From assembly GCF_027579695.1 (NCBI RefSeq), contig NC_083570.1, forward strand, positions 9,410,793 to 9,474,792: a stretch of 64,000 bases of DNA, written 5' to 3'. The stretch's first letter is position 1, and each line of letters opens with the position of its first letter. Below are positions 1 to 64,000 of the stretch, in pieces. A model generated the notes under the pieces. The model made no database searches, was not told where the DNA came from, and saw only the letters and a list, made by a program, of their open reading frames with translations. Origin of the DNA: Neoarius graeffei. Lineage: Eukaryota > Chordata > Actinopteri > Siluriformes > Ariidae. The translations under genes were made by a program, and so were the position numbers.

Positions 1-374
1 TAACATGAGAACAAACGAAGAAGACATTTTAACATTTTGAGTCATATGATTAGCACTGTAGTGCTGCCTGTTTTTAGTCTACAATGCTCGTTGTCAAATC
101 TCACATCAGTCAATATAAATCTTTTTTTTGTTAGAAAATCAGTAAAAATAACATACAGTGGTGCTTGAAAGTTTGTGAACCCTTTAGAATTTTCTATATT
201 TCTGCATAAATATGACTGAAAACATCATCAGATTTTCACACAAGTCCTAAAAGTAGATAAAGAGAACCCAGTCAAACAATGAGTCAAAAATATTATACTT
301 GGTCATTTATGTATTGAGGAAAATGATCCAATATTACATATCTGTGAGTGGCAAAAGTATGTGAACCTTTGCTT

Positions 375-1104
375 TCAGTATCTGGTGTGACCCCCTTGTG
401 CAGCAATAACTGCAACTAAACGTTTCCGGTAACTGTTGATCAGTCCTGCACACCGGCTTGGAGGAATTTTAGCCCGTTCCTCCGTACAGAACAGCTTCAA
501 CTCTGGGATGTTGGTGGGTTTCCTCACATGAACTGCTCGCTTCAGGTCCTTCCACAATATTTCGATTGGATTAAGGTCAGGACTTTGACTTGGCCATTCC
601 AAAACATTAACTTTATTCTTCTTTAACCATTCTTTGGTAGAACGACTTATGTGCTTAGGGTCGTTGTCTTGCTGCATGACCCACCTTCTTTTGAGATTCA
701 GTTCATGGACAGATGTCCTGACATTTTCCTTTAGAATTTGCTGGTATAATTCAGAATTCATTGTTCCATCAATGATGGCAAGCCGTCGTGGCCCAGATGC
801 AGCAAAACAGCCCCAAACCATGATACTACCACCATCATGTTTCACAGATGGGATAAGGTTCTTATGCTGGAATGCAGTGTTTTCCTTTCTCCAAACATAA
901 CGCTTCTCATTTAAACCAAAAAGTTCTATTTTGGTCTCATCTGTCCACAAAACATATTTCCAATAGCCTTCTGGCTTGTCCACGTGATCTTTAGCAAACT
1001 GCAGACGAGCAGCAATGTTCTTTTTGGAGAGCAGTGACTTTCTCCTTGCAACCTTGCCATGCGCACCATTGTTGTTCAGTGTTCTCCTGATGGTGGACTC
1101 ATGA
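375..1104 (-). pseudogene. Tc1 transposase, catalytic half (copy A)
   Basis: The frame is open from the insertion point at about 1108 down to the stop at 375. It contains the DDE signature of Tc1 transposases: D in WTDETK, D in QQDNDPKH and E in NPIEILW, with 34 residues between the second and third acids (DD34E). The usual GGGSIM motif reads DGGSIM here. It is separated from its N-terminal half by the inserted element, so this is a fragment. Confidence 0.9.
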
Positions 1105-1108
1105 ACAT

Positions 1109-2878
1109 GTAGGTGTATTATGTTTATGTGTATGTAGATTGGTGTTAAGTGATCAATCTTTAATAATTAAATTGAATCAATCCCATTGAATCATTTAATT
1201 TGAATCATTTGAATTTAATCATACCATTGAATCAGTCTCATTGAATCAGTCTCATTGAATTGTTTAAATTGAATTGTTTAAATTGAATTATTTAAATTGA
1301 ATCATTTAGTGAATCATACCATTATCGGGTATATTCAGAATTATTATGGTCACTTACCAAGCTGCAGCTAATAGTATTCATATACACCTTAAGAGTTCTT
1401 TTGAGATATGGGCGACTTCAAGAAGTATCGGAACAGCAGACAAACACACACAGTTTCAATAATAATGGAATTTATTATAACAAAGATAAAAATTGAATAG
1501 CAGCAGATGAAATCTTCTGTAAACAGTGTGTGTGTGTGTGTGTGTGTGCGTGTGTGTAGACAAAAGATTAGCTTTGTAGGCTAATTAGACAAAGGAAAGC
1601 TAGCTAGCATGTGTTTGTGTGTAAACAAATGATTAGCTTTGTGTGCTAACTAGACAAAGGAAGGCTAGCTAACATGTGCTTTTGAGGCCCAGTAGCCACG
1701 TGGTGCTTTTGAGGCCTAGTAGCCACGTGGTTGTGTGTGAGCGTGTGTGTATGTGTGATAACAAAATTAAATGTTAACAATTAAAATGCATTCAAATGGT
1801 CATCCGTGATATATGTAGATTTGAATGTGGGCACGGGAGAGTGCGCTATAAAGGTTGAATTGAATCAGGACTTAGAATATTATCTAAAGTTGAGACAAAA
1901 GACCTCGTGATAAAGAACAAGGGGGTTACCACGTGTCTCCTTACAGAACAAAGAGAGTTAGCTCTGGTTTGCTAGCTAAAGCATTTGTGAGGCCTAGTGT
2001 GTGTGACCACGTGGTGCATCCTGGTCCCTGGAGAAAAAAAGGGTTTCCCTAGACAGCTAACCCACTAGCTTTATAGTATTATTCAATTTACTGAAATCTT
2101 AATGAGGTCAAAATATGGGTAAATAATGAAATTAAAATGTTAGGAAGAAAGAGAGGGCATGCAAAACCTATCTATTAAACAATTGAGACCAAAAAGAGAA
2201 CAAATTATAGAAAACCAAAATCAGTGTGCACACTTAAACAATCCCTGAGTGTAAATTCACACTAAGTAAACAAACTAATTCCTAAGACTAGTCTTCTTGC
2301 CCAAACACCAGTCTTACTTCAAAAATCTCGCCTTTTTGTAGAAAGCAGAGAATCCTGGGAGAGGGTAAGTTCACAGGAGCTCGGAAAAACTTCTGTGGGA
2401 AACAGAGGATCCTTGAAGAGGCTTCGTAGCTCGTGGGAAGGAAAACTCTGATCAAACAACGTGCACTAGTTAGAAGGGTCCAGCCGCTTCTTAACTACAA
2501 ATTAAACTGCCTTGGGCTGCAGTTTCGTACGTACTCATAAGGAATAACTGAAAAACGGTTATAACTCACTTGAGTTAAAGATCGCGTGTTTCCGGAGTCT
2601 ACCGTGATCAAGGGTAAACAAAAAGGAAAACGTGCTGAAATGTAGATCTTGCAAGAAAGAAGTCATGGTTTCGGACGGTCCGATAGTGAGTGCCTCCTTT
2701 TAGGTCTGTTCCGTGTGGTTTCAGCCGCCAAAGAGAAAGATATGGCGGACTTCCAGGTCCTTTATGGAATCATGGAGGATGTGATGCAAGCAATCCCGCC
2801 CAGGCGTGACGTAGGTCAACGCGGAAGTTGGCTGGGAGTTGTAGTTCTTAGACAGTAGGTGGCAAACTGTACCTACAG
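1109..2878. mobile_element. Unclassified 1.77 kb insertion inside Tc1 (copy A)
   Basis: The insert splits the Tc1 transposase gene and is flanked by ACAT on both sides (1105-1108, 2879-2882), a plausible 4-bp target duplication. Its ends, GTAGGTG and ACCTACAG, are weakly inverted. Near the left it holds a degenerate tandem array built on TTTAAATTGAATCA (about 1165-1315) and a GT microsatellite (about 1527-1557). I see no convincing protein. It could be a non-autonomous element or a solo terminal repeat of an LTR element. The family is not recognised. Confidence 0.6.
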
Positions 2879-2882
2879 ACAT

Positions 2883-3172
2883 TAACATTAGCCAATGTGA
2901 GAGAGGCCTTCAGTTGCTTAGAAGTTACCCTGGGGTCCTTTGTGACCTCGCCGACTATTACACGCCTTGCTCTTGGAGTGATCTTTGTTGGTCGACCACT
3001 CCTGGGGAGGGTAACAATGGTCTTGAATTTCCTCCATTTTGTTCACAATGTGTCTGACTGTGGATGGGTGGAGTCCAAACTCTTTAGAGATGGTTTTGTA
3101 ACCTTTTCCAGCCTGATGAGCATCAACAACGCTTTTTCTGAGGTCCTCAGAACTCTCCTTTGTTCGTGGCAT
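2883..3172 (-). pseudogene. Tc1 transposase, N-terminal DNA-binding part (copy A)
   Basis: It starts MPRTKESSEDL and carries the paired-like helix-turn-helix segment of Tc1 transposases (GKGYKTISKEFGLHPSTVR). The frame then slips soon after VNKM, where Tc1 proteins normally continue with the second DNA-binding helix set, so this part is already broken independently of the insertion at 2878. Copy B shares the slip, which therefore predates the duplication. Confidence 0.85.
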
Positions 3173-3636
3173 GATACACTTCCACAAACATGTGTTGTAA
3201 AGATCAGATGTTGATAGATCCCTGTTCTTTAAATAAAACAGGGTGCCCACTCACACCTGATTGTCATCCCACTGATTGAAAACACCTGACTCTAATTTCA
3301 CCTTCAAATTAACTGCTAATCCTAGGGGTTCACATACTTTTGCCACTCACAGATATGTAATATTAGATCATTTTCCTCAATAAGTAAATGACCAAGTATA
3401 ATATTTTTGTCTCATTTGTTTAAGTGGGTTCTCTTTATCTACTTTTAGGACTTGTGTGGAAATCTGATGATGTTTTCAGTCATATTTATGCAGAAATATA
3501 GAAAATTGTAAAGGGTTCACAAACTTTCAAGCAGCACTGTAGGCTACCTGTAGTGTCTATAGGTCCAAAAAGCTTCACTGATCTTTTTCCCATTATTCAA
3601 CATCAGTAGTAAACATACATTCTGTATTTACAATGG

Positions 3637-6365
3637 CATAGCTGCCAACTACTACGAATAAATCGTATTTATTACGATTTGTCGTTTTGATTACGAAAAT
3701 ACGAATTTACTACAATAAAATACGATTTTGCCAATTTTCATGGGTCATTTTCAAAGTCTATCACCGGTGGGATTCGTATTTGATAAAACACCGCTTCGTT
3801 CCAAGCGGCAGATACTACGCCAAATTTCATTGGCTATTGCTTGTTCTCTCAGCCAATCAATGATGCTATAGACCCCTTCGCAGTAAACGTCATTCTTACG
3901 TAAGCGGAAATTGCGCGCGCAGCCTGGACTCAAAAAAGCCTAGTTGTTGTGTTGTCGGGTGTCAGAATCGTAGCAGTGATGGGGTTAAAATGTACAGAAT
4001 TCCAGAAGGATCTCACCCATTCCAAAAAAATCGCCGACGTCTATGACTACAAGCCATCAAACGTGTAGACTGGGATGAAAGCACTATCAAAAATGTGTGG
4101 GTTTGCAGCACCCACTTCATCACAGGTAAGATCAGGCTATTTATTAAATCTTTCTTTTTTATTCTTTCTAGTCTTCGTTTATTGATGTAGCAAAATACTT
4201 TGGTAACGTTTGTCTGATTAGCTGGGTCATAGTTACACAATGTAATGAATATTGTTAGCATGTTAACTTAGCTTTGGCCAAACAAAATAATGTGTTTCCG
4301 GTTACCCGACCGACCCTGTAAAAACACTGCGACCCTTCAACTGCTTATGACCATGATAAACAAACTATTTCTCGCGCCCAACCCTACCTGCTTGGCAGCC
4401 ACCTGGCGAGTCAAACGAGAACCGCTAGGGCGTGTCATATAAGCCACTCGGTATTTGCTGAAAGACACGAGGCCCGTCAGGAGTAAATTGGAGAGGCTGG
4501 GACCTCCCCTGCCCGAGTTACGAGCGTCCAAAGTCGGGCAGGAGCCGCCGATAGAAAAACGAAACTAAAGCCGAGCACCGTGGCTCTTCGTCCCGAGGCG
4601 CAGGGCTAGCCCGCCCTGCCCGCGCTGGTTCTTTGTGGGCAGGGCAGAGGTCTCATGCGGGGAAAATAATTTAGTGTGGATATGGCTAGATAGTGATTGA
4701 AATAATGCATACATCACAAAGAACTGTTTGCTCAGGGTATAAATCAGGTATTCAACACGTCCAATGCTATTCTATACTCAACTTAAGATATCTGAATTGA
4801 TGATAAATCTGAAATTGCAGGAGTTTGTGTCAGTGAAATGATACATTCCTTGATTTCCTCCTGATTTAAACCTTAGAGCAAATACCATGGACTAACAGGG
4901 CTGAAAAATGAAAGCATTTGCATTTATTTTGCAACACAATTTACAAACACAGAATAGGAAACTTAAATATAGGAAATTTTAGTTTCTTTATTTGAAAAGA
5001 AAATGGCACGGAGCAGCTGTATTCATTAGAACAACATAAGTGAACATTGCATTCATAGACAGAATAAGAAAAAACATGAAGCAAATATAACGTCATTAAG
5101 GCCGAGATGTTAGGCATGCACCCAATTTTGATAAACACACAAGAGATCAGTTTTAAGCATGAAAGTCCCCACTAGTATATAAAAATATATTTTGGAAATG
5201 TTCAGAACTGAAGGGATAGATCTAGGTACTGGACCACAACCACCACTCTGGCCACCACCAAATAGATCATCCACCAAAACATTCCCATTTTACCTGGAAA
5301 ATGAAAGTATGCCATCATTATTAGAACAATTTATATACAAGTGCATCCTTATATCATCAACGATATCTGATGACTAGGTTTAGTTTTGAACGAGTATTTT
5401 GCAAAAAAAAAAGTTTTCAAAGGAAACTTCTCACTTTTTCCTGCCTACCCTAGAAAATTTGTTGTAAACTTTTGGGATAAACACATTTTTTTTTTTCCCT
5501 ACCTACCTACCCTATTTTGAAAACCCAGGAAACACACATTATTTTGTTTGGCCTTTGCATGCAATTTTGTTTGTAGGAGAGGTCTCACTTGACTCAAGCA
5601 GTCCAGATTTTGTGCCATCATTATTTGTGTATGCCTAAAATCATAATTTTAAAGCAAGGATGGAAAGGTAAAATTGTGTGCCCTCACTCTAAATGCCAAC
5701 TTGCGTTGACTGCTCTAACCTAGCTCCCGCTCAGTTTTGATTTGTAGTCATGTGAAGAAGCAAGTTGAAATTGACACTTTTTTGAGCTGTTTCACTTAGT
5801 ATTTTTAGCTACTGTAATTTGCTTTGGGCTCAGCTTGTTTTTTATCTTTGAAGTGCCATATTCATTGCCAATTTTCACATTTTGTTGTATATTTAATTTT
5901 GATGACAAAGTTCATAATATTTTTTTGTATCAACTTTCATTGATGTAATATTCTTAATTCATTTTTGTTTGTGACTAATGAATGAATGGTGTTAGATATT
6001 GCCAAGTTTGTGGTGCAATAACATCAACTGTTGACTGAGTAAGCTCTGGTCTATTTCTCTAATGTGTACTTTGTCAAAAGTTATATCTGCTAATTGCATT
6101 GTTTGAAGTTTTTGCCTGATTCACTGACTATTTTCATACATTGTTGAAAAGAACTTTGCAAATTAATGTAAGATGATAGTTTAGTTTGTAGAATAAATTT
6201 TGTCAAACTATTTTGTTTGTGTGATTTTTTTTTTTTCAGGGTAGTTTTGCTAGAAAGCTTTGGTGGCGGGGGGCAAAGCCCCCCCCCCCCCCCCCCGACC
6301 CCCCACCAAGACTCAGTACCCAACCTTGTATTACTATTTACAATTTCGGAATGTTGGCAGCTATG
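3637..6365. mobile_element. 2.7 kb THAP-coding DNA transposon fossil (copy A)
   Basis: The ends are inverted repeats: CATAGCTGCCAAC on the left and GTTGGCAGCTATG on the right. Inside, near the left end, is one THAP zinc-finger exon (3942-4125). The rest is AT-rich and without recognisable coding sequence, with a C-rich run near 6280-6298. THAP domains occur in P-element, Kolobok and ISL2EU-type transposases; I cannot choose between these families. No clean target duplication is visible. The right end lies only 79 bp before the first CFAP206 exon of this model. Confidence 0.65.
3942..4125 (+). pseudogene. THAP zinc-finger exon with internal stop (copy A)
   Basis: The translation starts SCCVVGCQNRSSDGVKMYRIP and has the THAP pattern: a paired cysteine motif at the start and CSTHF near the end. 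It is followed by a splice donor (gtaaga at 4126). A TGA at 4044-4046 lies between RRR-L and LQAIKR, where THAP domains normally have their invariant tryptophan. Copy B has the same TGA, so the exon was dead before the duplication. Confidence 0.75.
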
Positions 6366-6444
6366 AAATTGGTTTCTCGGACCACCATTTCACCATAGCA
6401 CAAGACCTTCCTCTTCTTAGGGTACGTCTGTGTGTGTGTTCTAG

Positions 6445-9400
6445 CCGCACTGCAGAGTGTGTTCCCTCCATCAGAGCTGGCCGCCTTCATGTCTCTGCTC
6501 AGGCGTGATAAAGAACAGCAGCTGAATGAGCTCACCATGATCGTCACCGGGATTCGCCTCTTCAACAAGGACAGCGGGAAAGGAGGAGAGAGCATCGAGG
6601 ACCGTGAGTGCATCTCACCTCGCGTTCTAATTAACGCTCGCCATCGTGATTCATTTTATAACAGCAGCTCTGACAGTCATGCAGATTTACATTAACATGC
6701 TCGTTTTGGTACGTTAACATTCTGTTAAATGACGGGATGCTCTACGTAAACCAAATTGAAAATCACTGAACAGTTCTTGAAGGTAAGGAGACGTTTATTC
6801 AACTTTCGCTCATCTTCAGGACAGAAGAGTTTACGATGATGTTTTTTGACGTTCATTAACCGCAAAGGCAGGAATGTGAGTGAGAACGGGAACTCACTTG
6901 TTTCCCACAAGTTCAAAAATGTAAATAGAAATGGATAGAAAGTATGGCGAATTGTTCTGTAAGACATTTATTGATGTAATCGTCAATAAATTGCTGTGGT
7001 GTAAGACAGAAGGGAACAGTCAGGGCCTTCTCGGCGTTCAGAGAAGCCCAAACGTATCAGCATTTCAAATGTTATGTTTAATTTCTTTCATAATTTCATT
7101 ATAATTATTCTCTCTTAATTCTGATTTGGCCTCATTTTCTATCACATTTGCTTCAGAAGTGAAAGGGTTACTGTCCTGAAAACATTAAAATCGAGTTCTC
7201 CAATGAGATTTTGTTTGTTGTGTCTAGGCTGAGAAGAGTTCAGAGCTGCTCACTCATTGGTTAGGACTTCATTGCTGGGACAGAAGGCCATGGCAGTGTA
7301 TGTTTATGTAGGAAGTGACAGATGAATTAATTAACCAATCAGATTTTGATTTATAGTTGGAGGGACTAAAAATGTATCACCCTCAGCCTTCTCGAAGGCC
7401 AATGCAAGCTTAACTGTGAGTCGGCGCAGCAGTGAAGTCACCTTCCAGCCAGTATAGCGTTCATCAGTAGTGTTAGCGAATGCTAATAAAGCAGTCAAGC
7501 CAGTGCTATCTATCGAGAGCTACAGGCTAACAACCGAGAAACTAAGATTTCTGTCTCCAGACTCTTCTTCCATGCTGCACGCTCGCTACAGTATTTTTCA
7601 CTCAGACTTAAGTGTAATTTACTTTGTTACTTTTAAAATCAACATCGACAGCTACACACAACGGAGCGACCTGGCAGCCTGCCACTAATCCCTTACAAAA
7701 TCTTTTGCCCTGTTGCTTTTTTGGTGTGTTTGGTTAAGTTTTGGCTGAGCTCAAGTCCTATGTCTAATAGTAGGGGAGAGTGGGGTAAGATGAGCCAGGG
7801 GGTAAGATGAGCCACCCCCTGTTTCTAAGAAACAGTAAACAAATGTGACCATGTGACCACATTCAAAGGGGGGCGGGACCATTTACTTACACTTGTGGAG
7901 AGGAGCACCACATGTCAAACTAGGTGAGGGAGATATTTATAAAAATGTGTTTTTGTGCTTTCTAAGTCAATTCCATGTTTGTCCACAGTGAAGATGATTT
8001 AGAGAAGACAAAAGTAGAATAATATTTAGACACATTAGGGTTAAGTTAGTGGCTTTCTAAGCTATGATATGAATGCTAATAAAAATAATTTTGATTAGCC
8101 TAATCCCCTTTATTAGCATTTTTCTACAAAATGGTGGCCACGGGGTAAGATGAGCCATTAGATATGGGGCAAGTTGAGCCACTGGCTCAACTTACCCCAT
8201 TGGTGGCTGAGCTTACCCAATATGGATGACACTTAAGTTTTCATATTTACTGGTCATATATGACAACAACAACAACAAATAAATAATATGTTAATATAAA
8301 TAATGTGTTTAAAAGGTTTTTAATAAATAAAATAATGCCCTCTGTTATTACAGGTGTGCATGATGCCACACTCATACAAAAGAAAAACAGACAGGGCCGC
8401 ACAATCCCGTGCAGTTTTGGAGAGAGCCGCAGAGGAAGTCAGGAAAGGCAGGCCTATTCGGGCTGTGGCGAGGGATATGCATTTGGACAGGATGACTCTG
8501 ACTAGGTTCATTGAAAAGATAAAGAATGGAGAGGTAGAGACCAAGTTGGTGAAAGTGCATTACTTCATTGGCCAGATAATCAAATTGGATGTCTTCGAAA
8601 TAGAGGCAAGATTTCTCAAAAGAAGCCGGTCATGCCATGGCTCTGCAAGAAAGCCAACCTTTGTCTTCAAAGAGAAAGATGAGGCTGTCCTGTCAAGACA
8701 GGATATTGTGAAAAATTGCCCCGCCCCTTTACTGTTGGTGGGACAGCACGGAGGGAGAGGCAAATGGTGTTCCCTTGCAATTTGAATGCTTGGAACATTG
8801 AATAATGATGAAATGATTGATGGAATGATTGCTGCATGTTTTAGCAATGTTTTAACCTACTGAAAGAAATAAGATTTTTTTGCACTGCTCTACTGTTTTA
8901 GTAATTTCTATAATATAGTATATCTCTCATTCCCTCTCTAACCATCCCTCTTTCTATCTATCTATGCATATCTCTCTCTCTGTCCATCTATCTATCCCTC
9001 CCTATCCCATCTCGTTCTATCACCTCTCTCTTCATCTCTACTTCTCTATGCAACGGCCCTATCCCCCACTTGCTTGACTTGACTTGATTCATTGATTGCA
9101 CTTCAAATAATAAAAGCTGTTTACTTTGTTAACCTAACATGTTTTGTGTTGGCTCAATTTACCCCACACAGTGGCTCATCTTACCCCGTGCATGGGGTAA
9201 GTTGAGCCACTTGACATTTTTTTTTCAAGAGGTAATATCACTCTAACCATAAGAGCTTATCAATTATTTTTTGCTCAGATAGTAACAGTACACTTTGAAA
9301 TTTGGTATGGTGTGTAGACTGGAAGCAAAAATGGCTTTAAAATGTAGTTATGATGAAAAATGTAAAAAGTGGCTCATCTTACCTCGCTCTCCCCTAATAG

Positions 9401-12400
9401 TTCGCCGCAGGTCTAAGAGGAACTCGGTCAGGTTTATGCATTTTTGTGACACACTGTACATTTATAATTACTGTAGGATTTAATTTAATTATTGTAACAA
9501 ATGTTCAGAAATCCACACATATTGACAGAATACAGGCTTGTAAGAAACTGTACATGTTTATAGAGCAAGGTTTTTTTGAAGTAATCGTGGTAATGTCTTC
9601 TGTGTTACATTGTTGATGTGCAATCCTGGTCGTCGTGGCTCTCTCGTGAAGTGCTGGCCGTCCTGAACGAGGCTCTTCCTGCTGTCAGCACAGATATAGA
9701 GCGTGAACTGGAAGGGATGCAACGTTTGGCTTGGCGCTACACCACTCTGCTGGAGAGACGCTCTGAATCCGACACTGACGCCAAGCTAAACAGGGACCTG
9801 CTCACACAGGCCCTGTACAACGTACGCCAACATGAAGCCTTCCTCAAAATCATACTGGTGCGTTACAGAGATGTCTAAATGTTCAAGCCAATGATTAGAA
9901 TAAAAGTTATTGGAAAACATTTAAATTTCTGTTACTATTTTATTCTTATTATGGCTAACTTTTGCTAATAATCATAAAGAGTAAAAGTCACGTAATGTAA
10001 TAAAACGTAGTTCATTTGTCTCCGCCAGGCGGATGTGATCACATGTGCAAAGCAAGTGGAGGCTCTTCACACTGACCTCATGTCGAGGATGAAGGTGCTG
10101 AAGGCCACAGTTCATGCCAAAACTGCCGTACCAACCTCCCAAGTGTTCGTAAGTGTTCCTTTGCTCTGTCAAAAACTCTTTGCTAGCATCATTTTCAGTC
10201 TGATAATTTTAAATCCCTCCCATTAGCCTCATTTCACAGCGTTGGCCAGGCTGTGGGCGGGGCTTCAGGATGAGATGGTCTTGTTGAACATGCTCCGGAG
10301 CATGGCGTTCAGCCTGAGGCCGTTCCTCTCGGCTCAGTCGCAACTTCTCGAGAACGTTCAGTTGGATCAGATGCTCCGCGGTGAAACCATCAAATCTGAC
10401 GCAGAGAGAGCTGCTGAGAGCTCAGGTACGTTCTGACATCACAAGCTTTTTATTCATTACAGAACAGCATCTTGTGAGTGGGCAGCTTGTTATGTCCAAG
10501 AAGTGTAGCGTAAACTCCTCTGGGCTGAAGACATCGGAAAAAACTTGAGCATTACAGCTTTACGTCTTTGAGTGAGCGCATTTCATTTCTACATTATCAC
10601 TCATCATGTGTAGTGTAGCACTCATTTTCTCTTTTTCAGAGGAGCGGCTTGATCCAGAGGAGATGAAATCGTCCGAGTGGATTCTGCCCGAGACCACGGC
10701 GAACTTTGAGCAGCTCTTCCTGCAGTACAGGGGTGTGTGTGGATACACTCTTGTCGAGAAGAACGGCCTCTTGCTCCCAGGTTCATAGTGAAGCTTTTCT
10801 TTCTCCAGTTTTACACTCTGCTTTTTTTAGAGTCCGAATATTAGAGCGTTCGTACGACTAGACAGTGTTTAGACCAAGACGTATTCATCTCCCCAAAAGA
10901 AACAAATTTGTGATGTAAAGTGACACTACAGCATTAAAACACTGAAAGTGAAACATCTCTGGCTGAAGCTCCTCGTTCTTCAGTCATTAATTCGACTTAC
11001 TTTGTTTTTTCCATATTTGCTTTTGGTGTTCGACGAAATCTTTTTCAGGGAAGGCCTTCCTTATTTCAGCAAGACCGCTTTCTGCACATATTAAAACTGC
11101 ATGGCTCTGTAGGAAAAGAGTCCAGGTGCTAAACTGGCCTGCTGCAGTCCAGATCTGTCTCCCATGTAAAACAGTTGGTGCATTATGAAGCGCAAAATAC
11201 GACAAAGGAGACTCCGAACTCTTGAGCAACTGAAATTGTACGTCAGGCAAGAATGGGACAACGTTTCTCTTTCAAAACTACAGCGGTTGGTCTCCTCAGT
11301 TCCCAAACGTTGAGAGAGTTTCGTTAAAATTAGAGGTGATACACAGTGGTAAACGCCCTTGTCCCAACTTTTTTGAAATGTGTTGCTGACATCAAATTCA
11401 AAATGAGCATAGATTTTTCAAAAAACAATAAAATTTCTCAGTTTCAGCATTTGATATGTTGTCTTTGTACTATTTTCAATGAAATACACGGTTTCCAAAT
11501 TGTCATATTTTGTTTTTATTTATGTTTTACACAGTGTCCCAACTTTTTGGGAATTAGGGTTGTAATTAAACCGACTTTTAAATATAATTAATAATGGACA
11601 CGCTTTAAGGCAGACGTCCATATTTCTGAAGCTCAGTCTGCTGCTGTTCCTTTCCAAAGGCAATCCGAACATCGGCATCCTGAAGCACAGGGAGAAATAT
11701 TACAGCTTCAGCTCCAAGCAGGCCGCGTATCAGTTCGCCTCAAACGCAGACGAGTACATCGAACTGATTGCGGAAAGAGCGAAGAGATCTCCGGAGCTGA
11801 TCCAGCTGCTCGAGCTTCATCAGCAGTTTGCCAGCGTCACTCCGTACTCTCAGGTATCATGGACGTGTGACTTACTTGCATCTTCTCCTTCACATACTTG
11901 ACCTACTCGCTGATCTCCACCACAAACTCCATTCCCCATGAACACTCTTAGCCTACAAATATGGCTGATCCAGCACCTACATACTGATCCAACACAATCA
12001 GTTGCGGCGTATGAAGACTCCACACACACTCTGCACATTAAAACTGCTCAACTGCAATCCCATCCTTGTCCATCTCATCTGTGAGCCTGAGAGTGACAGG
12101 AAAATAATCAACAACAATGCGGTGAGCCAGTGCAAAGCAGCGTTTCTTAGAAATTTTGTCTTCACAGATGCAGTCAGGTCAGAAATTGTTGGTGAAACCC
12201 ATCAGCAAAAGTGAAAGCAGCACACAGACGGACACACACCTGCTGGAGAGCAACATCGTCAGATCTTACGAGTGGAACGAGTGGGAGCTGAGACGGAAAG
12301 CCATCAAACTGGTAAGCAGCTCCACCTGAAATACACTGGCATGATTAGATTACGCTCAAGCTGTCCGAAAAGCCCTGAAATAAGTTTAACACGTTATTTT

Positions 12401-12639
12401 GTTGAATGCACTCCAAGGCGAACCTGCGCCATAAGGTAACCCACTCGACGCAGACTGACCTGAGCCACATGAGGAGACACAACACCACGCAGACGTTCCT
12501 TCCAAAAGAAGCCGCCTGCCAGACGAAGAGAGACGGACAGAGTAACGTACCGAGACCTCAAGTCTACCTGGCTGGGCTGAGAGGAGGACCAACCACTCCC
12601 ATGACCAAACTCGATTTAACTCCAGATGTGCATGAATAG
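6445..12639 (+). CDS. cfap206: CFAP206, last eight exons (copy A, 5' end not in window)
   Basis: CFAP206 is an axonemal protein that docks radial spoke 2 and dynein c and is needed for ciliary and sperm motility (family knowledge). Exons: 6445-6603, 9652-9857, 10029-10148, 10227-10425, 10640-10780, 11660-11853, 12168-12311, 12418-12639. Phases join cleanly to give 461 codons. Recognisable blocks are AALQSVFPPSELAAFMSLL, MIVTGIRLFNKD, GLLLPGNPNIGILK, SYEWNEWELRRKAIKLANLR and VPRPQVYLAGLRGG, all typical of CFAP206 (human protein about 620 residues). About 160 N-terminal residues are missing here and would lie left of the window. The exon ending at 10780 has a weak donor (gttcat), the same in both copies. 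Exon 1 is preceded by a transposon end and the next intron holds a pogo-like element. Confidence 0.88.
6604..7772. other. CFAP206 intron sequence with dispersed repeat
   Basis: There is no coding sequence here. About 6650-7000 matches a dispersed repeat also seen at about 12690-13120, 23900-24000, 28090-28230 and 37900-39540. Shared phrases include AACAGCAGCTCTGACAG and AAATGGATA. The remainder (7000-7772) shows nothing I recognise. Confidence 0.5.
7773..9394 (+). mobile_element. pogo-like DNA transposon, deletion derivative (copy A)
   Basis: The left end reads GGGGAGAGTGGGGTAAG and the right end mirrors it with two mismatches. TA flanks each side (7771-7772, 9395-9396), the target duplication of the Tc1/mariner/pogo superfamily. 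The subterminal regions repeat the motif GGGGTAAGATGAGCC several times in both directions, likely transposase-binding sites (inference). It holds one short coding exon with a psq-type helix-turn-helix and no DDE catalytic domain, so it is an internally deleted, non-autonomous member. It sits in a CFAP206 intron. Confidence 0.8.
8363..8785 (+). pseudogene. pogo-like transposase remnant (copy A)
   Basis: A tract ending in tacag precedes the ATG (acceptor at about 8353). The start, MPHSYKRKTDRAAQSR, and the segment RPIRAVARDMHLDRMTLTRF form a psq-type helix-turn-helix like that of pogo/Jerky transposases. The next part runs to a conserved-looking tail. In copy A an A-run is one base shorter than in copy B (5 against 6), so the last 25 or so residues are in the wrong frame. 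The catalytic core is missing. Confidence 0.65.
10985..11590 (-). mobile_element. DNA-transposon remnant in CFAP206 intron (copy A)
   Basis: This matches 39546-40240. It is a common fish repeat with GTCCCAACTTTTT-type ends and broken coding traces (for example a minus-strand SFERETLSHSCLTY stretch in the shadow frame). Copy A keeps the distal end with the second CCCAACTTTTT; copy B has lost about 127 bp here. The family was not assigned. It lies between the CFAP206 exons ending at 10780 and starting at 11660. Confidence 0.6.
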
Positions 12640-13247
12640 TTAATTTGTTTGTTAGTTAGACCTAGTATTGAATGTTTGTATTGAATTGTTGCATTCTGGT
12701 TTCTGATTGGCCAGAAAATACTGATTAATTTTCTCTGAAAGTTTTGCAGGCGTATATTAATGCACTCGTTCGAATTTATGGTTTTCATCGTACCAGCTCG
12801 TTCCCAGGGATTTCTACGATGGACGCTAGACATAAACCGATTTTAAAAATCATTTATATGGTGATGTTTTCGTAACTGAAGGGAGATGTTCATTTAGCAT
12901 TTCTGGAAGGAGTCTCCAGTGTAACAGTCAGAGGTAAAGTTTTGTGACACCTTCAGGACAGAGGAGTTTATGCTTCGCAGTTTCTTGGTTACAACATGAT
13001 TTTTTTTGTTGTCTTATTAACTTTAAGAGACGGATAATAGGCAGGCTGGTGAGGGAACGACTGTTAATGTAACTATAAATGGATAAAAAAAACTATGATG
13101 TGAAATTTGTAATTGTTGGCAAATTGCTGTGGTAAAAGAGGAATTGTGGGAGATGCTACTTTGGTACCGAATGTCAGTCAAAGCAGCGCGCACACAATTA
13201 TGAAAATGATCTTATTGGCTCTAATAATATTAAATATTATTATACAT
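12640..13247. repeat. CFAP206 3' flank with dispersed repeat
   Basis: This is sequence between the CFAP206 stop and the hAT insertion. About 12690-13120 is a copy of a dispersed, probably MITE-like repeat (key phrases GGAAGGAGTCTCCAGTGTAA, GGCTGGTGAGGGAACGAC) also present at 37900-39540 and, in part, at 6650-7000 and 28090-28230. No gene is seen. Confidence 0.55.
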
Positions 13248-19222: not shown

Positions 19223-19259
<37 letters not shown>

Positions 19260-41815: not shown

Positions 41816-41860
<45 letters not shown>

Positions 41861-54488: not shown

Positions 54489-56280
54489 TTAATTTGTTTG
54501 TTTGTTAGTTAGACCTAGTATTGAATGTTTGTATTGAATTGTTGCATTCTGGTTTCTGATTGGCCAGAAAATACTGATTAATTTTCTCTGAAAGTTTTGC
54601 AGGCGTATATTAATGCACTCGTTTGAATTTATGGTTTTCATCGTACCAGCTCGTTCCCAGGGATTTCTACGATGGACGCGAGACATAAACCGATTTTAAA
54701 AATCATTTATACGGTGATGTTTTCGTAACTGAAGGGAGATGTTCATTTAGCATTTCTGGAAGGAGTCTCCAGTGTAACAGTCAGAGGTGAAGTTTTGTGA
54801 CACCTTCAGGACAGAGGAGTTTATGCTTCGCAGTTTCTTGGTTACAACATGATTTTTTTTTGTCTTATTAACTTTAAGAGAAGGATAATAGGCAGGCTGG
54901 TGAGGGAACGACTGTTAATGTAACTATAAATGGATAAAAAAAACTATGATGTGAAATTTGTAATTGTTGGCAAATTGCTGTGGTAAAAGAGGAATTGTGG
55001 GAGATGATACTTTGGTACCGAATGTCAGTCAAAACAGCGCACGCACAATTATGAAAATGATCTTATTGGCTCTCATCTCATCTCATTATCTGTAGCCGCT
55101 TTATCCTTCTACAGGGTCGCAGGCAAGCTGGAGCCTATCCCAGCTGACTACGGGTGAAAGGCGGGGTACACCCTGGACAAGTCGCCAGGTCATTACAGGG
55201 CTGACACATAGACACAGACAACCATTCACACTCACATTCACACCTACGGTCAATTTAGAGTCACCAGTTAACCTAACCTGCATGTCTTTGGACTGTGGGG
55301 GAAACCGGAGCACCCGGAGGAAACCCACGCGGACACGGGGAGAACATGCAAACTCCACACAGAAAGGCCCTCGCCGGTCCTGGGGCTCGAACCCAGGACC
55401 TTCTTGCTGTGAGGCGACAGCGCTAACCACTACACCACTGTGCCGCTTATTGGTTCTAATAATATTAAATATTATTATACATACAGGAGACTTTTTCGAT
55501 GGAATAAAAATGTGTTCTATTCCCTTCTAGTGGGTTTCATTCATTTGGTTTGGTAGCATGGAATATTGTTAGCGTATTGCTTATCCTATGTGTATTATGT
55601 CACTCTACCCAATGGAGAATGAGCGTTGAATATAGTTTATGATATTGGATGGTTGTCAAGGCAACATGACGTCACACATCAATGATGTAAAACTTCTGCG
55701 TGAGCGAGCGAGCAACTGTGACAATTTGTGAACAAACAGCTTCTACGAATGCTTCATTAAATACAGAAGATTTTGAGAGAATTTTGAAAGAGAAAGACGC
55801 GTTGAACACCCGGAAGGAATGTTTTATAATAATAATAATAATAATAATAATATTGACTGGCTTTTTTGTGGTCTATCAGATATACTGTATTCCATTCAGC
55901 TACTTTGACTCATTCATTATCATGCTAGCTGAATGGAATATATCTGATATACCACTCAACACCAGACAATATTATTTAATTATCCTGAGGAATAACACAG
56001 CAGACTGTGAGGTTACACAAAAATAATCCACGCCAGCATGGATTTACCACTTTACCATCTTTGATTTATTAAAAAGTAGCAGGTGTATAAAATGAGATTG
56101 AAGCTTCTGCACACACAGACACACTGTCACACAGCCACACCCCTTTGACAGTCTGCACTCCTACTCTTTTTAAAGCTCCACCCACTCTGCCTCTGTGATA
56201 TCGTATCTCACAGTGCAGCAGGACGCTCATTTCAAAGCACACAATTCCGATCTCTACTGTATGTGTCGCTCTCTGGAAAA
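54489..56280. other. CFAP206-TRIM intergenic region (copy B)
   Basis: It holds the dispersed repeat (about 54540-54970), the SINE at 55074-55446, the empty hAT site (about 55478) and the palindromic hairpin at 55870-55952 (TATCAGATATACTG ... ATATATCTGATATACC). A short run of ATA repeats lies at about 55826-55850. No gene. Confidence 0.6.
55074..55446 (-). mobile_element. tRNA-derived SINE (copy B only)
   Basis: TTATTGGCTCT at 55063-55073 and TTATTGGTTCT from 55447 form the target duplication. Copy A has one TTATTGGCTCT at about 13213. The tRNA-like head is at the right end, read on the minus strand. Confidence 0.92.
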
Positions 56281-57905
56281 ATGGCTGAGGCCAGTATTTC
56301 AGTAGCTCAGGACCAGTTCATGTGTCCAGTGTGTCTGGATCTCCTGAAGGATCCGGTGACTATCTCCTGTGGTCACAGTTTCTGTAAGGCGTGTATTAAT
56401 GGCTGCTGGGATCAGGAGGATCAGAAGGGTGTCTACAGCTGTCCTCAGTGCAGAGACACTTTCACTACAAGGCCTGTTCTACGCAGAAACAACATGCTGG
56501 ATGAAGTGGTGGAGAAACTGAAGAAGAAGACTGAAGTCTCATCCTGTTTTTGTGAACACAACACCGAGTCAGGTGCATCAGACAAAGAACAGGTGAGAAG
56601 GAGAAATGGTTTCAGACTGAATCCTTCGACATTTTGTTTCTAATCCTGCTTTACTCAGGTCATATGGTGTAAAAATTTCATGACTTCTATTGATTATAAA
56701 TAATAAATATGTTCCATGTATCCTGTAGATGTGAACAGTTTTACAAGCACATACTGAGTACCTTTGACCTCACTCAGAGAGAGAGCCAGGATATGGATGA
56801 TCTTTAACTTGAATTGCAGTTAATAATCTCCCACCTTCGACCTGTCTTTGAGTGAACACTTTACAGTTAGTAAAGTTAGTAATTAACTCAGGATGTAACA
56901 TCATTTCATTCATTCTTGTCAGAGTGAGTTAAAGTTGAAGGAGGAGCAGATGAAATCCCAGCAGAGAATCCAGGAGAAGCAGAAGAAGGTGCAGGAGCTG
57001 AAACAGGCTGTGAACACTATAAAGGTGAGCAGTGAGCAGAGACAGAGCTGCTCCTAGAAACACACACAACATGGACAACGAGTCATTTACAGTCCCAGTA
57101 AGAGAGGGAATGATAGATGAGCTTTAAATCATGTGTGTGTGTGTCCTAACAGATCAGTGCACAGACAGCAGTGGAGGACAGTGAGAGGATCTTTACTGAG
57201 CTGATCAGCTCCATGGAGAAAAAGCGCTGGGAGGTGACGGAGCTGATCAGAGATCAGGAGAAGGCTGAACTGAGTCGAGCTGAACGACTCCTGGAGCAAC
57301 TGGAGCAGGAGATTGCTGATCTTCAGAGGAGAGTCACTGAGCTGGAGCAGCTTTCACACACCCACGATCACATCCATTTCCTCCAGGTAACACTCATTGT
57401 CTGATATCACTTGCACTGTGGTCTGAGAATATTCGTCCATCTCGTACACCGCTCCGTTTCCAGTCTCTCAGTGTCTCTTCTGGACGTGGTGACTCATCCA
57501 TCATTACTGTCCATCAACATGTTTCATTTGATGGAGTGAGGAATTATCTCTCAGAGATGAAAAAGCAATTCAACAAAATCCCTTCATATGGTGAGAGGAA
57601 GTAAAATGTTATAAATCCACGCATATACATAAAAAAAGATTTATTGTACTTATCTGAACTTAACATTGTCGCAGCTACCATCTGAAAGATATTGTACTTA
57701 TACAGTTCATCAGTCATATTAAGATCATTTATTTTGCCAATATTCATAAATTCAAACATCGTGTCTCCTAAAATCACACTCTGATCATTGTATATTATTC
57801 CACCTCCATTTTCTCTCCGTCACAGCAATTTGGATGAATTTACCTTCAGAGCTGAAGACTCGAGAAGATTTTCTACAATGTATGTATGCATCTCTCTCTC
57901 TCTTG

Positions 57906-57983
<78 letters not shown>

Positions 57984-60900
57984 GCTGCCAGATCATTAAG
58001 AACATATGTTGTTTTTGGAGACGTTTCCTTCCACAATAAAGAGAAGTGAAGAATGGAGGTGTCATGTTGAGTGTCGCTGACAGCACAGCGCTGGTGAAGT
58101 TCGATATGTTTGATCCATGAATGTATATGAAGGTTAATAGCATTCTAGTAATTTTCTTTCCTGAAGTTTATACAAGAATCAAGTCAAGTTTATTTGTATC
58201 GAACTTTTAACAACAGACATTGCCACAAAGCAGCTTTACAGAAAATTAAAGACTTTGACCATGAGCTAATCCATCCATCCATTATCTGTAGCCGCTTATC
58301 CTGTGCAGGGTCGTGGGCAAGCTGGGGCCTGGCTGGGTGAAAGGTTGGGTACACCCTGGACAATTCGCCAGATCATTGCAGGGCTAACACATAGAGACAA
58401 ACAACTATTCACACTCACACCTATGGTCAATTTAGAGCCACCAATTAGCCTAACCTGCATGGAGCACCAAGAGGACATGCAAGCTCCACACATAAAGGCC
58501 CCCATCAGCCACTGGGCTTGAACCCAGAACCTTCTTACTGTGAGGCGACAGTGCTGTACCACCGTGCCACCACATGAGCTAATTTTATCCCTAATTTATC
58601 CCCAATGAGCAAGCCTGTGGCGACGTTTGCAAGGAAAAACTCCCTCAGGCGACACGAGGAAGAAACCTTTCGAGGAACCAGACTCAAAAGGGAACCCACC
58701 CTCATTTGGGTGATAACTGATAGCATGATTATAAATAACTCTCTTCCATAACTGTGTCCTACAGAGCCACAAATTATAACTGTGTAACCAGGAACTTCAT
58801 TATAGTTTTAACACGAAGTCTGTTTTGTTGAAGTGATAAACTGTTCATTGATGGAAACTTGAGTGCAAAACTGTTCAAGACAACTGCAGTCCTAAAGTTA
58901 GCAAGTCAGCTGTAGTTCTCAGACATAAATATATTACTGTAAGTGTCCAGAGCGTCTTCTAAGTATGACTTTTGACTGTCCATATGGGACCGTCCTCCAC
59001 AGGAGTGATGTGATGAGACTCCAGCCAGAAGTAGGGCATCAGGATGGATCAGGCAGGTCCGAGGAGCAGAAGAGGTCAGCCACACTGGTTTCTCAGGATC
59101 GACATGTAACTCAACAGAGAGAGACAGACAGGAGAGAGAGAGAGAACAAAGGTTGTGAGGTATGCCCAGTGTCACCTAATGAATAAGAACAGTATACATT
59201 TTGCGCTGAGTGCAAGCAGGGACTCTGGCAACACTAACTATGACAGCATAACTAAAAGGGAGAGCCAGAAGGTAACACAGGCATGAGGGAGCCCTGGGAC
59301 ATAAAGCAGCAGCCACTCCACCATCAACAAACCTGAGTGAGTGAGTGAGTGAGTGAGAGTGGGGGACTGACAACATCCATATATCCCAGTTTACCAAAAC
59401 ACTCTATGCTTGAGGACTCACCAGAGTTACTCCTTTACCAAATAAAAAACTATCTTGACTCATCTCTCATTATCTCTAGCCGCTTTATCCTTCTACAGGG
59501 TCGCAGGCAAGCTGGAGCCTATCCCAGCTGACTACGGGCGAAAGGCGGGGTACACCCTGGACAAGTCACCAGGTCATCACAGGGCTGACACATAGACACA
59601 GACAACCATTCACACTCACATTCACACCTACGGTCAATTTGGAGTCACCAGTTAACCTAACCTGCATGTCTTTGGACTGTGGGGGAAACCGGAGCACCCA
59701 GAGGAAACCCACACGGACACGGGGAGAACATGCAAACTCCACACAGAAAGGCCCTCGCCGGCCATGGGGCTCGAACCCAGACCTTCTTGCTGTGAGGTGA
59801 CAGCGCTAACCACTACATCACCGTGCCGCCACTATCTTGACTGAAAAGATATATTTTCAGCCTAGACTTAAACACTGAGACTGTGTCTGAGTCCTGAACA
59901 CTACTTGGAAGGTTGTTCTATAACTGTGGGGCTTTGTAAGAAAAGGCTCTGCCCCCTGATGTTGCCTTCACTATATGAGGTACCAACAAATAACCTGCAC
60001 CGTTTGATCTAAGTAGGCATGGCGGGTCATAAAGGACAGTGGCGGTTCTAGACCAAAATTACTAGGGGGGCCGAGGTGGGGCCAGTGTTTTTTCAGGGGG
60101 GCACATATAAGGACAAAACATGGCAATATTTAAGTGTTCAAAATGTTTTGTTTAGTTTATTTAAAACCAAAACAACATACATTGAGCATAAATACAATGA
60201 GATAAACATTCTCTCTCAATAGCCTGAACATAAAATAAATTGTGCTCAATAAATCTTAAAACCATGTTTCTCTTTTTTGTAAAATAAGATTTCTATTTTT
60301 GCATACAATGAACCTTTTCTTCAGATGTGGCTGTAATGGAGTGTCGTCCAAGCACTTGCTGATATCTGGAGAAAGATGAATACAGTAAATATGAGAGTGC
60401 GACTGAGAACAACATTTATTTATCATTATTCATTTATTAATTTATTATTATATCTATTATTTTTATTTTATATTTATTAATTATTATTCAGACTTCACAC
60501 TTTCAGGCTAGGCTATATGAATTGTAGGCCGACACCGCTCACACACACACATTTGTTCAACATCACAAACCTGATGGTGCTGTACTTGATATGCATGGTG
60601 AATCTGGTTGTCCCAATGACTCGTTGGGTTGTCCCTCATTCTGTCCCTCAATCTGATCCTGAATGTCTTCATCCTCACTCTCAGATTGCCTTTCAGATGC
60701 CTCACTTTCCACCTCTCCAACCACCACCTCTGGCTCTCTCTCCTCTTTCATAATCTTCATCTTCCTTACTCTCTCTATGTTGCTTTTTGCCAACAGGGGC
60801 AAAAAAGGACATAATGTCCTTCTTGCTCCTTTTCATGATGACAGCCTACAGTAGGCCTATACTAAAAAGTAAACAGAGAGGAATGTAGCCTCTACATATC

Positions 60901-63802
60901 ACAAGGCCATTCAAGTTTTACAAGCAGGTTAAACACTGTCTGTTATTTTACCCATTTCCCAAAAATATTAAGTTAGGCTACTTATTGCTGTGCAACGCAC
61001 TTTTAAGAAAGCACAATAAAACGGATTTATTATTGTAGTGAACAACAACAGTCAAACACGGATATGTGCAAACACTGACGTTACAAAATTGAATAATTTT
61101 CCTTACCTTCGCTTCTTTGCAGTAGCCTAGTCCTTGCAGGGCTGCAGCTGTTATCTCTCACATCCGAAGTTTACAATTCGTGCTGCTGCTGGTCTTTCTG
61201 CTGCAGGTAACAGTGTGCGTGTAGCGCTTTAAGGAGTCCGTGTAGAACACTCCGTCATGTCAGTTCCGATCTTTGAGCCAGCGCATGTCGAAATTAATAA
61301 ATCTTATTATCTGTTCAGCACAGGGGCCACAACAGGGGCCAGGAGCAATTTTACAGGGGCACTGGCCCCCCTGGCCCCCGTTTAAAACCGCCTATGATAA
61401 AGGACCAGAAGTTTGTTCAGGTACTGTGGCGCAAGACCATTCAGTGCTTTAAAGGTCAATAGTAGTATTGTATAATCAATACGAAATTTGATTGGGAGCC
61501 AATGCACTGTGGATAAGACAGGGGTGATGTGGTCATATCTTCTAGTTCTAGTAAGGACCGTTGTTGCTGCATTTTGAACTAACTGGAGCTTGTTTATGCA
61601 CTTATTGGAACATCCAGACAGTAAGGCATTACAGTCATCCAACCTGGAGGTAAGAAAAGCATGAACTAGTTTTTCTGCATCTTACTGACATTAAATTTCT
61701 TATCTTAGTGATATTTCTGAGATGAAAGAAAGCTATCTGGGTAATGTTATCATTATGAGTTTCAAATGAAAGACTGGAGTCAATGATCACACTGAGGTCT
61801 TTTACTGCTGCACATGAAGAAACAGAAAGGTCATCCAGAGTTACTGTGTAATCAGAAAACTTACTTCTAGCTGCATGAGATCAGAGTACAAGTACTTGTG
61901 TCTTGTCAGAATTAAGCAGAAGGAAGTTAATAAGCATCCAGTGTCTAATGTCCTTTACACATTCCTCAATTCTATTAAGCTGATGTGTCTCATCTGGCTT
62001 TGCAGAAACTTACAACTGTGTGTCATCAGCATAACAGTGGAAACTAATACCATGCTTATACCATACCCAGAGGTAACATATATACTGTAAAGAAAAAAGC
62101 AGTGGACCTAAGACAGAACCTTGTGGAACACCAAACTTTACCTCAGCATGCATAGAAAAATCAGCATATACATCAAGAAACTGATAGCGATCAGTTAAAT
62201 AAGAGCTGAGCCAGGAGAGGGCCGTTCCCTTAACTCCCACAACATTTTCTAGTCTATCCAGGAATATGAAATGATCAATAGTGTCAAAGTCTGCACTAAG
62301 GTCAAGCAACACAAGCAGCGAGACACAGTCCAGATCAGATGCCAACAACAGGTCATTTACTACTTTAACCAGTGCTGTCTCTGTGCTATGATGAGGTCTA
62401 AATCCTGACTGATACATTTCATGGTTGTTATTCCGATGTAAATATGAGCATAACTGCTGTGCCACAGCTTTTTCTAGGATCTTGGAGATAAAGGGGAGGT
62501 TTGATAATGGCCTTTCATTGGGCTGACAGGGGTCGAGGTCAGGTTTTTTAATCAGGGGTTTGATAACTGCAAGTTTAAAGGATTTGCGTATGTAGCCAAT
62601 TCTAAGGGAAGAATTGATTATTTCTAGAAGAGCTTAAATTGCTTCTGGTATTATCTGTTTGAAGAGACATGTAGGTAAGGGATTAGTACACAAGAAGAAG
62701 ATTTTGATGTGGAAATTAATGAAATTAATTTGATTTCTCGAAGAGGAGTAAAACATTCTAATTGCTGAGCTTATACAGTTATATTGTTAACGACTGGGTT
62801 ATTTAAGTTGTCTGGGCTTAAATGAGTAGTTTGAATTTTTTTGTTGGATAGTTTCAATTTTGTGATTGAAAAAAAATTATGACGTTGTTGCTGCTGCATA
62901 TTGCAGGTGCATGTGTGTCTGTAGTGGTCTTTTTCTTAGTTAATTTTGCTACAGGATTAAAAAGGAATCTAGGATTATTTTGTTATCTTTGATTAGGGTG
63001 GAGAGATACATTGATCTTGCAGCACGAGGAGCTTTTCTATACTTCAGGAAGCTCTCCTTCCATGCTAATTTGAATACGACCAATTCTACAAGGAATATCA
63101 TCTAATTGTGTAATCTCCTGCTCTCTCTCTGATATAATGTGTAAGAAACTGAGGGTGTGAGAGAGTGTCAATATGAGGCACTAATGAATTACTGGTTTAA
63201 TTATGACCCATTGTACCCCAGTGTTTAATACACGATAAACTTTATTGCGCAACATCTCTTTTCTTTCAGATTTCTGTTATCTGACTCTGGATCCCAACAC
63301 GGCACATGGTTCCCTCCGTCTGTGTGAGAAGGACAGAGCGGTGAGACGCAGTTATAAAGAGAAGCTGTTCCCTTGTCACCCTGAGAGGTTTACCTCCATC
63401 GCTCAGGTGTTGTGTAAGGAGAGTGTGTGTGGACGCAGTTACTGGGAGGTGGAAAGGAGCAGTGAGGGATGTGTGTACATCTCAGTCTCATATAAAGGGA
63501 CCAATAAAAAAGAGCAGCCCAGACGGACCATATTTGGGTACAACGATCAGTCGTGGAGTCTGGTGTGTTCTCGGACTCCTCTTCATTTCTATCACAACAA
63601 CATTAAGACCGAGTTCGGAGTTCCGTCACCTTCCAGAATAGGAGTGTATGTGGATCACAGTGCAGGAACTCTGTCCTTCTACAGCGTCTGTGACAGGATG
63701 AAGCTCCTCCACAGAGTCCACACCACATTCACTCAGCCTCTATACGCTGGGTTTACTCTGTGGGCTCCTGAATCAGTTGTCAGGTTTTCTGATCCACAAT
63801 AA
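56281..63802 (+). CDS. finTRIM-type gene without B-box (copy B)
   Basis: Exons: 56281-56592, 56923-57024, 57153-57386, 57464-57590, 57826-57879, 63270-63802; 453 residues, all phases intact. Domain order as in copy A: RING, coiled coil, PRY/SPRY, no B-box. About seven amino-acid differences from copy A: T for I after KKK in exon 1, I for L at the start of exon 3, N for H in [10 protein letters not shown] for V in AIWMN, and in the last exon YKEK for YKVK, VLCKES for VLCRES, SVCDRM for SVSDRM. The last intron has grown to 5.4 kb through a SINE and a hAT-type insertion. The 5' flank keeps about 80 bp lost in copy A, including a TTTTTAAAG stretch. Confidence 0.88.
57893..57980 (+). repeat. CT/CA compound microsatellite
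   Basis: A CT-rich run passes into about 27 CA units, starting 14 bases after the donor of the short TRIM exon 5. Copy A has a much shorter version (about 20009-20046). Confidence 0.9.
58271..58573 (-). mobile_element. tRNA-type SINE nested in the L2 fossil (copy B)
   Basis: Counterpart of 20336-20638 with the same ATGAGCTAAT target duplication (58261-58270 and 58574-58583). Confidence 0.8.
59461..59830 (-). mobile_element. tRNA-derived SINE (copy B only)
   Basis: Target duplication ACTATCTTGACT at 59449-59460 and 59831-59842; copy A has it once (about 21511-21522). Head at the right, minus strand; same family as 24714-25089. Confidence 0.93.
60037..61396. mobile_element. hAT-type non-autonomous element (copy B only)
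   Basis: Exact 8-bp target duplication ATAAAGGA at 60029-60036 and 61397-61404; copy A has it once (about 21708). The ends are CAGTGGCGGTTCTAG and, reversed, CATAGGCGGTTTTAAA, followed on both sides by G-rich GGGGGGCC blocks. The interior has an acidic minus-strand stretch (about 60800-60560; [20 protein letters not shown]), but no BED finger or catalytic domain is recognised. Probably a deletion derivative. Confidence 0.85.
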
Positions 63803-63864
63803 TGGATCATTAATGTATATTATCCTGTACTGAGTGCTGTGGAGTTCTGGTCTGAAGGTGTTGA

Positions 63865-64000
63865 TTAATTCCCTATAACAGCAGCTCTGACAGGAGTGCA
63901 GCTGCAAATCATTAGTGTTTCTATAGTAACAGCTCGTGTGTGTTTCTCACAAGCATTCCACCTAAAATACTCTCTTACTGCCACTCGACATGAACATGGT
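63865..64000. repeat. TRIM copy B 3' flank with dispersed repeat
   Basis: Contains AACAGCAGCTCTGACAG and TTCTATAGTAACAGCTC, the same repeat seen at 23900-24000 and inverted at 28090-28230. It is cut by the window edge. Confidence 0.55.

What the first reader, a model, noticed from the sequence alone, without database searches (positions are those of the whole stretch)
1..64000. 24 kb direct duplication whose private insertions order its history
Copy A (1-24046) and copy B (40309-64000) share the Tc1, its 1.8 kb insert, the THAP fossil, the L2 and one SINE, so these came first. The hAT at 13248, the SINEs at 50253, 55074 and 59461, the element inside the first of these and the hAT-type element at 60037 are each in one copy with a clean empty site in the other, so they came later. 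This gives a rare internal control for transposon activity after one event.
Basis: seen in the sequence. Interest (0 to 1): 0.75.

Follow-up and report, generated by a model that had tools for sequence, protein, structure and literature searches.

The report
Tandem array of recombining TRIM genes
What looked like one 24-kb duplication with datable private transposons is a window onto a much longer tandem array of antiviral-type TRIM genes whose units appear to exchange segments, so two neighbouring copies cannot be read as the two products of one dated event.

Summary
The two blocks and the named private transposons are real. But "24 kb" is set by the window edges: the sequence left of copy A is a copy of that left of copy B, and the "spacer" repeats too. 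Window 1-40307 is one ~40-kb unit; copy B starts the next. By my chaining rule at least 34 partial units lie at C2:8.67-10.71 Mb.

A and B are not simple sisters. In the first 5 kb that grouping is rejected (AU p 4e-6); there A is nearly identical to units 177 and 373 kb away, yet differs from the latter by 1.44% beyond 10 kb. Further along, relationships are unresolved.

Among the units listed, five of the six "later" elements occur once. The SINE at 50253 sits in 5 of 23 units, and with the element ending at 9394 gives all four presence/absence combinations, pointing to exchange between units, though loss or recurrence is not excluded.

The window unit has two TRIM-type genes. One gene's B30.2 exon has dN/dS 2.15 across nine copies; 148 of 150 scored relatives lie on C2. 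Best reading: a finTRIM-like array growing by block duplication and inter-unit exchange.

The parts
1..40307 (+). one whole repeat unit as seen in this window (unit A; period about 40.3 kb, phase arbitrary)
   Evidence: window 1-24046 repeats from 40308; 25090-40195 repeats again right of the window and in other units
40308..64000 (+). first 24 kb of the next unit (unit B), which continues beyond the window
154..3541 (-). Tc1-like element with 95% inverted ends, carrying a further insert, in both A and B
   Evidence: DDE_3, HTH_Tnp_Tc3_2; HTH_SB
7773..9394 (.). element with inverted ends and a TA duplication (marker M1); its right end is present in 8 of 23 units
   Evidence: clean empty site in unit 9012395, the only M1-lacking unit inspected by sequence
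11644..11832 (+). fragment matching FAP206 (cilia protein) inside the repeat
   Evidence: E 6.9e-25
13248..17651 (-). hAT transposon seen in unit A only, 8-bp duplication TTATACAT
   Evidence: (1 of 27)
18376..18735 (+). RING exon of the + strand TRIM-type gene; similarity to the RING/B-box exon stops before the B-box
23285..23845 (+). open frame with the PRY/SPRY (B30.2) exon of the + strand gene
24714..25089 (+). SINE seen in unit A only, in the 'spacer'
   Evidence: (1 of 34)
28914..29573 (-). open frame holding the PRY/SPRY exon of the - strand TRIM gene; exon-only dN/dS 2.15 between nine copies
32761..33453 (-). RING plus B-box exon of the - strand TRIM gene
35178..36135 (.). 958-bp element seen in unit A only
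   Evidence: (absent from 23 of 23 listed C2 copies at 94% identity or more)
50253..51891 (-). SINE present in 5 of 23 units; in B split by an element at 50384-51651 that the other four lack by gap length
55074..55446 (-). SINE seen in unit B only (TTATTGGCTCT)
   Evidence: (1 of 27)
59461..59830 (-). SINE seen in unit B only (ACTATCTTGACT)
60038..61396 (.). hAT-type element seen in unit B only (ATAAAGGAC)
61823..62089 (.). stretch kept in B and lacking in A and 19 other listed copies; most simply a deletion there

Best explanation
The window lies inside a long tandem array of roughly 40-kb units on C2. The window unit has two convergent TRIM-type genes, and both exon types recur in the fetched units, together with a shared load of older transposons. 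Units multiply by duplication of blocks of a unit or more and exchange segments by unequal crossing-over or gene conversion, also between units hundreds of kilobases apart. New transposons mark single units and are then copied or erased with the segment they sit in. Shown: the array, the unit length, unit-private and shared insertions, patchy divergence, near-identical distant blocks. Inferred: that exchange (rather than loss or recurrence) explains the marker conflicts, and that selection on the B30.2 exon is one reason the array keeps expanding.
For: Homology runs on past both window edges and through the spacer. Single probes give 23, 27 and 34 array copies on C2 and 23 at 94% or more; 34 partial units at 8.67-10.71 Mb by my chaining rule. 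A versus unit 9037933: 4 of 5981 sites differ in 0-6 kb against 197 of 13662 beyond 10 kb (Fisher p 6e-26). Units at 9037922 and 9588201, 550 kb apart, have 9 mismatches in 30 kb. A+B as sisters rejected in the first 5 kb (AU p 4e-6). Four-gamete conflict of M1 and the SINE at 50253, about 540 bp apart: both 1, M1 only 7, SINE only 4, neither 11 of 23 units. dN/dS of the - strand B30.2 exon 2.15, codon bootstrap 1.31-3.86, against 0.57 for its RING/B-box exon. 148 of 150 scored B30.2 matches lie on C2.
Against: In 20-24.7 kb neither A+B nor A+u2+9038 as a clade is rejected (AU p 0.28 and 0.14), so a topology conflict is not proven there; the case rests on divergence and markers. B shares no exclusive SNP with SINE-bearing unit 9012395 in the 540 bp left of the SINE and only 3 to the right, and their SINEs differ at 13 of 371 sites, so no recent tract from that unit is seen. 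The right half of B's SINE matches a SINE on C26 at 100%, closer than the other carriers' copies. Independent insertion or precise loss is not excluded. M1 was read from 95 probe bases only. No reads were available; long near-identical blocks could include assembly error.
Confidence: 0.85

Rival explanations
1. One 24-kb duplication made A and B; private insertions came after it.
For: Direct repeat and clean empty sites; five of six elements found in one unit only. In 20-24.7 kb A+B as sisters is not rejected.
Against: Homology beyond both edges; at least 34 partial units; A closer to distant units than to B in the first 5 kb; patchy divergence; shared SINE.
Confidence: 0.03
2. Assembly artefact: alleles or haplotigs placed in series.
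For: Some distant blocks are nearly identical (9 mismatches in 30 kb); reads are not at hand.
Against: At least 34 partial units with different insertions, far more than two alleles. The nearest upstream copies listed for the near-identical pair 9047234/9597511 differ at the SINE 50253 site: filled at 9012395, empty at 9541264. No N in the window or in the 200 kb fetched left of it.
Confidence: 0.07
3. A tandem array without exchange: every unit descends on one tree, and marker conflicts come from precise transposon loss or repeat insertion at the same site.
For: Insertions do cluster: two different SINEs and the hAT lie within about 37 bp in different units. The right half of B's SINE matches a SINE elsewhere at 100%. 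Few SNPs are shared only by B and carrier 9012395.
Against: The SINE at 50253 in B and in unit 9012395 has the same site, the same ends and the same short tail; A versus unit 9037933 differs about 20-fold in divergence between segments.
Confidence: 0.1

Closest known systems
finTRIM (ftr) gene clusters of teleosts (PMC2657112: passages, section 17; PMC3137616: passages)
   Same: RING/B-box exon and B30.2 exon, clustered copies, B30.2 with dN/dS above 1, B30.2 nearest TRIM16 and TRIM25 among solved TRIM structures.
   Different: That paper finds zebrafish ftr genes generally most similar to immediate neighbours and suggests tandem rather than en bloc duplication, with most clusters of one orientation; here the window unit has two convergent genes and A's closest match in its first 5 kb is hundreds of kb away. 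148 of 150 scored related B30.2 matches are on one chromosome.
NLR-B30.2 family of zebrafish (PMC4852459: abstract and passages)
   Same: Gene conversion and positive selection on B30.2 in a large fish immune family.
   Different: NACHT proteins, not RING/B-box; conversion inferred there from divergence of the coding domains, here from transposon markers and flanking DNA.

Membership tests
finTRIM-like TRIM (- strand gene) | RING and B-box domains in one N-terminal exon | tested here: met
   RING and B-box Pfam matches in 32761-33453; no stop in any of the 8 fetched copies aligned
finTRIM-like TRIM (- strand gene) | C-terminal PRY/SPRY (B30.2) exon | tested here: met
finTRIM-like TRIM (- strand gene) | B30.2 closest to TRIM16/TRIM25 among TRIMs | tested here: met
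   best TRIM hits TRIM16 (1.4e-28) and TRIM25 (6.3e-22); the best hit of all is stonustoxin beta, 1.4e-31; PDB sequences only, no fish TRIM to compare with
finTRIM-like TRIM (- strand gene) | positive selection on B30.2 | tested here: met
   9 copies, exon-only dN/dS 2.15 (1.31-3.86); a counting method, not a site model; two of the nine copies are shorter at the 3' end
finTRIM-like TRIM (- strand gene) | coiled coil, exon structure between the two domain exons, transcript | not tested
   no RNA and no exon model beyond the two domain exons
finTRIM-like TRIM | host is a teleost | not testable with these tools
finTRIM-like TRIM (+ strand gene) | RING and B-box domains in one N-terminal exon | tested here: not met
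   alignment to the RING/B-box exon covers only residues 1-88 in the six + strand copies counted and in u2
single two-copy segmental duplication | two copies with both outer ends inside unique flanks | tested here: not met
tandem segmental array | many direct units including the spacer | tested here: met

The most novel reading that the evidence does not exclude
An immune-gene array of well over a hundred closely related TRIM B30.2 exons in the first 11 Mb of one chromosome, in which transposon insertions act as tags that show unit segments being reassorted over hundreds of kilobases, so that diversifying B30.2 exons are shuffled between units while the RING/B-box exon stays constrained.
Probability: 0.45. 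Interest if true: 0.6.

Novelty: new member of a known kind. Interest (0 to 1): 0.45.

Why it matters
Dating a pair of duplicates by their private insertions assumes that the pair are sisters and that nothing was exchanged since. Here that shortcut fails in a measurable way, because many further units serve as outgroups. The same array offers many insertion tags for measuring exchange between immune genes in a repertoire that evolves by copy number and B30.2 change.

Tried and rejected
tRNA and Rfam (gathering) scans of the window gave nothing. The idea that the 362-bp insert shared by three units at the hAT site was a shortened hAT was dropped: it is a SINE with its own duplication TTATTATACAT. 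The idea that B took its SINE recently from unit 9012395 found little support: no exclusive shared SNP left of it, 3 to the right. The copy count by the + strand SPRY protein did not complete. Comparing the hAT with its relatives elsewhere did not complete. Literature: (finTRIM, expansion, genome assembly, tandem) listed nine papers, six, four, three, fifteen of 519 (most not about finTRIM). Nothing in these listings and abstract starts showed transposon tags used to trace exchange in a TRIM array; that is not proof of absence from print.

Limits: the genome search scores only the best 40 (DNA) or 150 (protein) candidates, so counts are lower bounds; B is missing from the listing and unit A from that, and both were taken from the window. 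Nearest relatives are among the fetched stretches only. Positions were typed by hand from earlier outputs. Left out: the reverse-strand matches near 10.92-10.93 Mb, matches outside 8.67-10.71 Mb, and site-3 matches 9911677 and 10423287, whose state at the 267-bp site is open; unit 10622928, with 847 bp there, was scored as not deleted. One search used 62 of the 150 matches. In the dN/dS sets the u2 copies (near-identical to the 9037922 unit) and a short B30.2 fragment at 9083935 were dropped. The 17-kb bin (6.85% of 336 sites) may be alignment noise; the left/right contrast stands without it (142 of 9014, p 3.6e-9).

Full report
The two blocks are real. Window 1-24046 and 40308-64000 align in direct order, at 96.7-98.8% in eight of nine blocks and 91% in one, broken by indels. 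The named private elements carry target-site duplications that can be read off directly. What is wrong is the frame. Both ends of the duplication coincide with the ends of the window. The genome search places the window at C2:9410793-9474792 and shows that the 2.3 kb left of copy A is a 97% copy of the sequence left of copy B. Right of the window, B continues through a copy of the spacer that lacks the SINE at 24714. In 200 kb fetched further left, units follow each other in the order of window 1-40307, spacer included, with gaps and truncated units. The window is therefore one unit of about 40.3 kb plus the start of the next.

The array is long. Empty-site probes found 23 C2 copies of the site of the SINE 50253, 27 of the hAT/SINE site at 13248/55074, 34 of the spacer SINE site, and 23 copies at 94% or more plus 7 at 89-91% of the 35178 site. 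Chained by position (a new unit when the site order resets or a gap exceeds 22 kb) they give 34 partial units between 8.67 and 10.71 Mb. A protein search with the B30.2 frame scored 150 of 776 candidates; 148 of the 150 are on C2, from 0.87 to 11.07 Mb, two on C23, at 79-100% identity. By my reading of that list 134 of the 150 have no stop inside. Some pairs have equal scores, three of them at offsets of 255,672 to 255,678 bases (62 of the 150 matches), which suggests block duplication.

Genotypes. The hAT at 13248 is in 1 of 27 copies and the SINE at 55074 in 1 of 27, the spacer SINE in 1 of 34. The SINE at 59461 and the hAT-type element at 60038 are in none of the 25 other copies listed on C2. 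The 958-bp element at 35178 is in none of 23. The SINE at 50253 is in 5 of 23; the nested element is in 1 of these 5, judged by gap length, about 1640 against 363-371 bases. Three other units share a different SINE at the hAT site, with 0 or 1 difference between copies. Its copies in B and in unit 9012395 have the same ends and differ at 13 of 371 sites, and the right half of the SINE plus flank of B matches the other four carriers at 96-97%, while the flank of A matches that of B at 99%. A further A/B difference, 61823-62089, is lacking in A and 19 other listed copies and present in most dispersed copies of the repeat; one dispersed copy, on C8, also lacks it, so a deletion is the simplest but not the only reading.

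Relationship of A and B. Mismatches are 68 of 9967 (0.68%) below 10 kb and 165 of 9350 (1.76%) above; 1-kb bins are heterogeneous, p 1.6e-25 under independent sites. Without the odd 17-kb bin the right side is 142 of 9014, p 3.6e-9. Against unit 9037933, A differs at 4 of 5981 sites in 0-6 kb and 197 of 13662 beyond 10 kb (Fisher p 6e-26). In the first 5 kb the tree joins A with the units at 9588212 and 9037933 (98/95) and rejects A+B (p 4e-6); in 20-24.7 kb the tree is nearly star-like and rejects neither A+B (0.28) nor A with those two (0.14). Units 9037922 and 9588201 differ by 9 mismatches in 30 kb.

Exchange. Marker M1 (the element ending at 9394, read from 95 probe bases) and the SINE at 50253 occur in all four combinations: both 1, M1 only 7, SINE only 4, neither 11 of 23. 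The M1 empty site in unit 9012395 is clean; the other M1-lacking units were not inspected by sequence for this. Other four-gamete conflicts involve M1 with a 178-bp deletion and with the 267-bp deletion, and the SINE with the 267-bp deletion; five further marker pairs of the nine besides M1 and SINE show no conflict, and one more has three combinations as well (four of ten pairs conflict, six do not). The deletion conflicts are weaker, since deletions can recur and some cells hold one unit. Against exchange, B shares few exclusive SNPs with the SINE carrier in hand, so the tract is short, old, or from another unit.

Genes. The - strand gene has a RING/B-box exon and a B30.2 frame with no stop in the aligned part of any fetched copy counted (8 and 9 copies; two of the nine B30.2 matches end early). 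Between the nine copies the B30.2 exon has dN/dS 2.15 (bootstrap 1.31-3.86); the RING/B-box exon has 0.57 between eight, the + strand SPRY 0.61 between seven and the + strand RING 0.40 between six. The + strand gene's RING exon loses similarity before the B-box in the copies aligned. Among solved structures the best TRIM matches are TRIM16 and TRIM25, in keeping with what is reported for finTRIMs (PMC2657112, passages and section 17). [quoted passage not shown] here, in the first 5 kb of the window unit, the nearest relatives found are hundreds of kilobases away.

Noticed in passing
window 11644-11832 (+): A fragment matching FAP206 (E 6.9e-25) is part of the repeated unit, apparently a captured piece of a cilia gene.
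   Followed up: no
L034-L036; C2:8859709, 9268695, 10691492: Three units up to 1.8 Mb apart share one SINE with 0-1 difference, inserted at the same left junction as the hAT of unit A; B has another SINE about 22 bp away, so this short stretch took three insertions.
   Followed up: partly
C2:3936213-3988998 and 4191885-4244676: Three pairs of B30.2 matches with equal scores at a near-constant offset of 255.67 kb suggest a large block duplication outside the window's part of the array.
   Followed up: no
window 35178-36135: A 958-bp element with CACTGTAAAAA-type inverted ends, seen in unit A only.
   Followed up: partly
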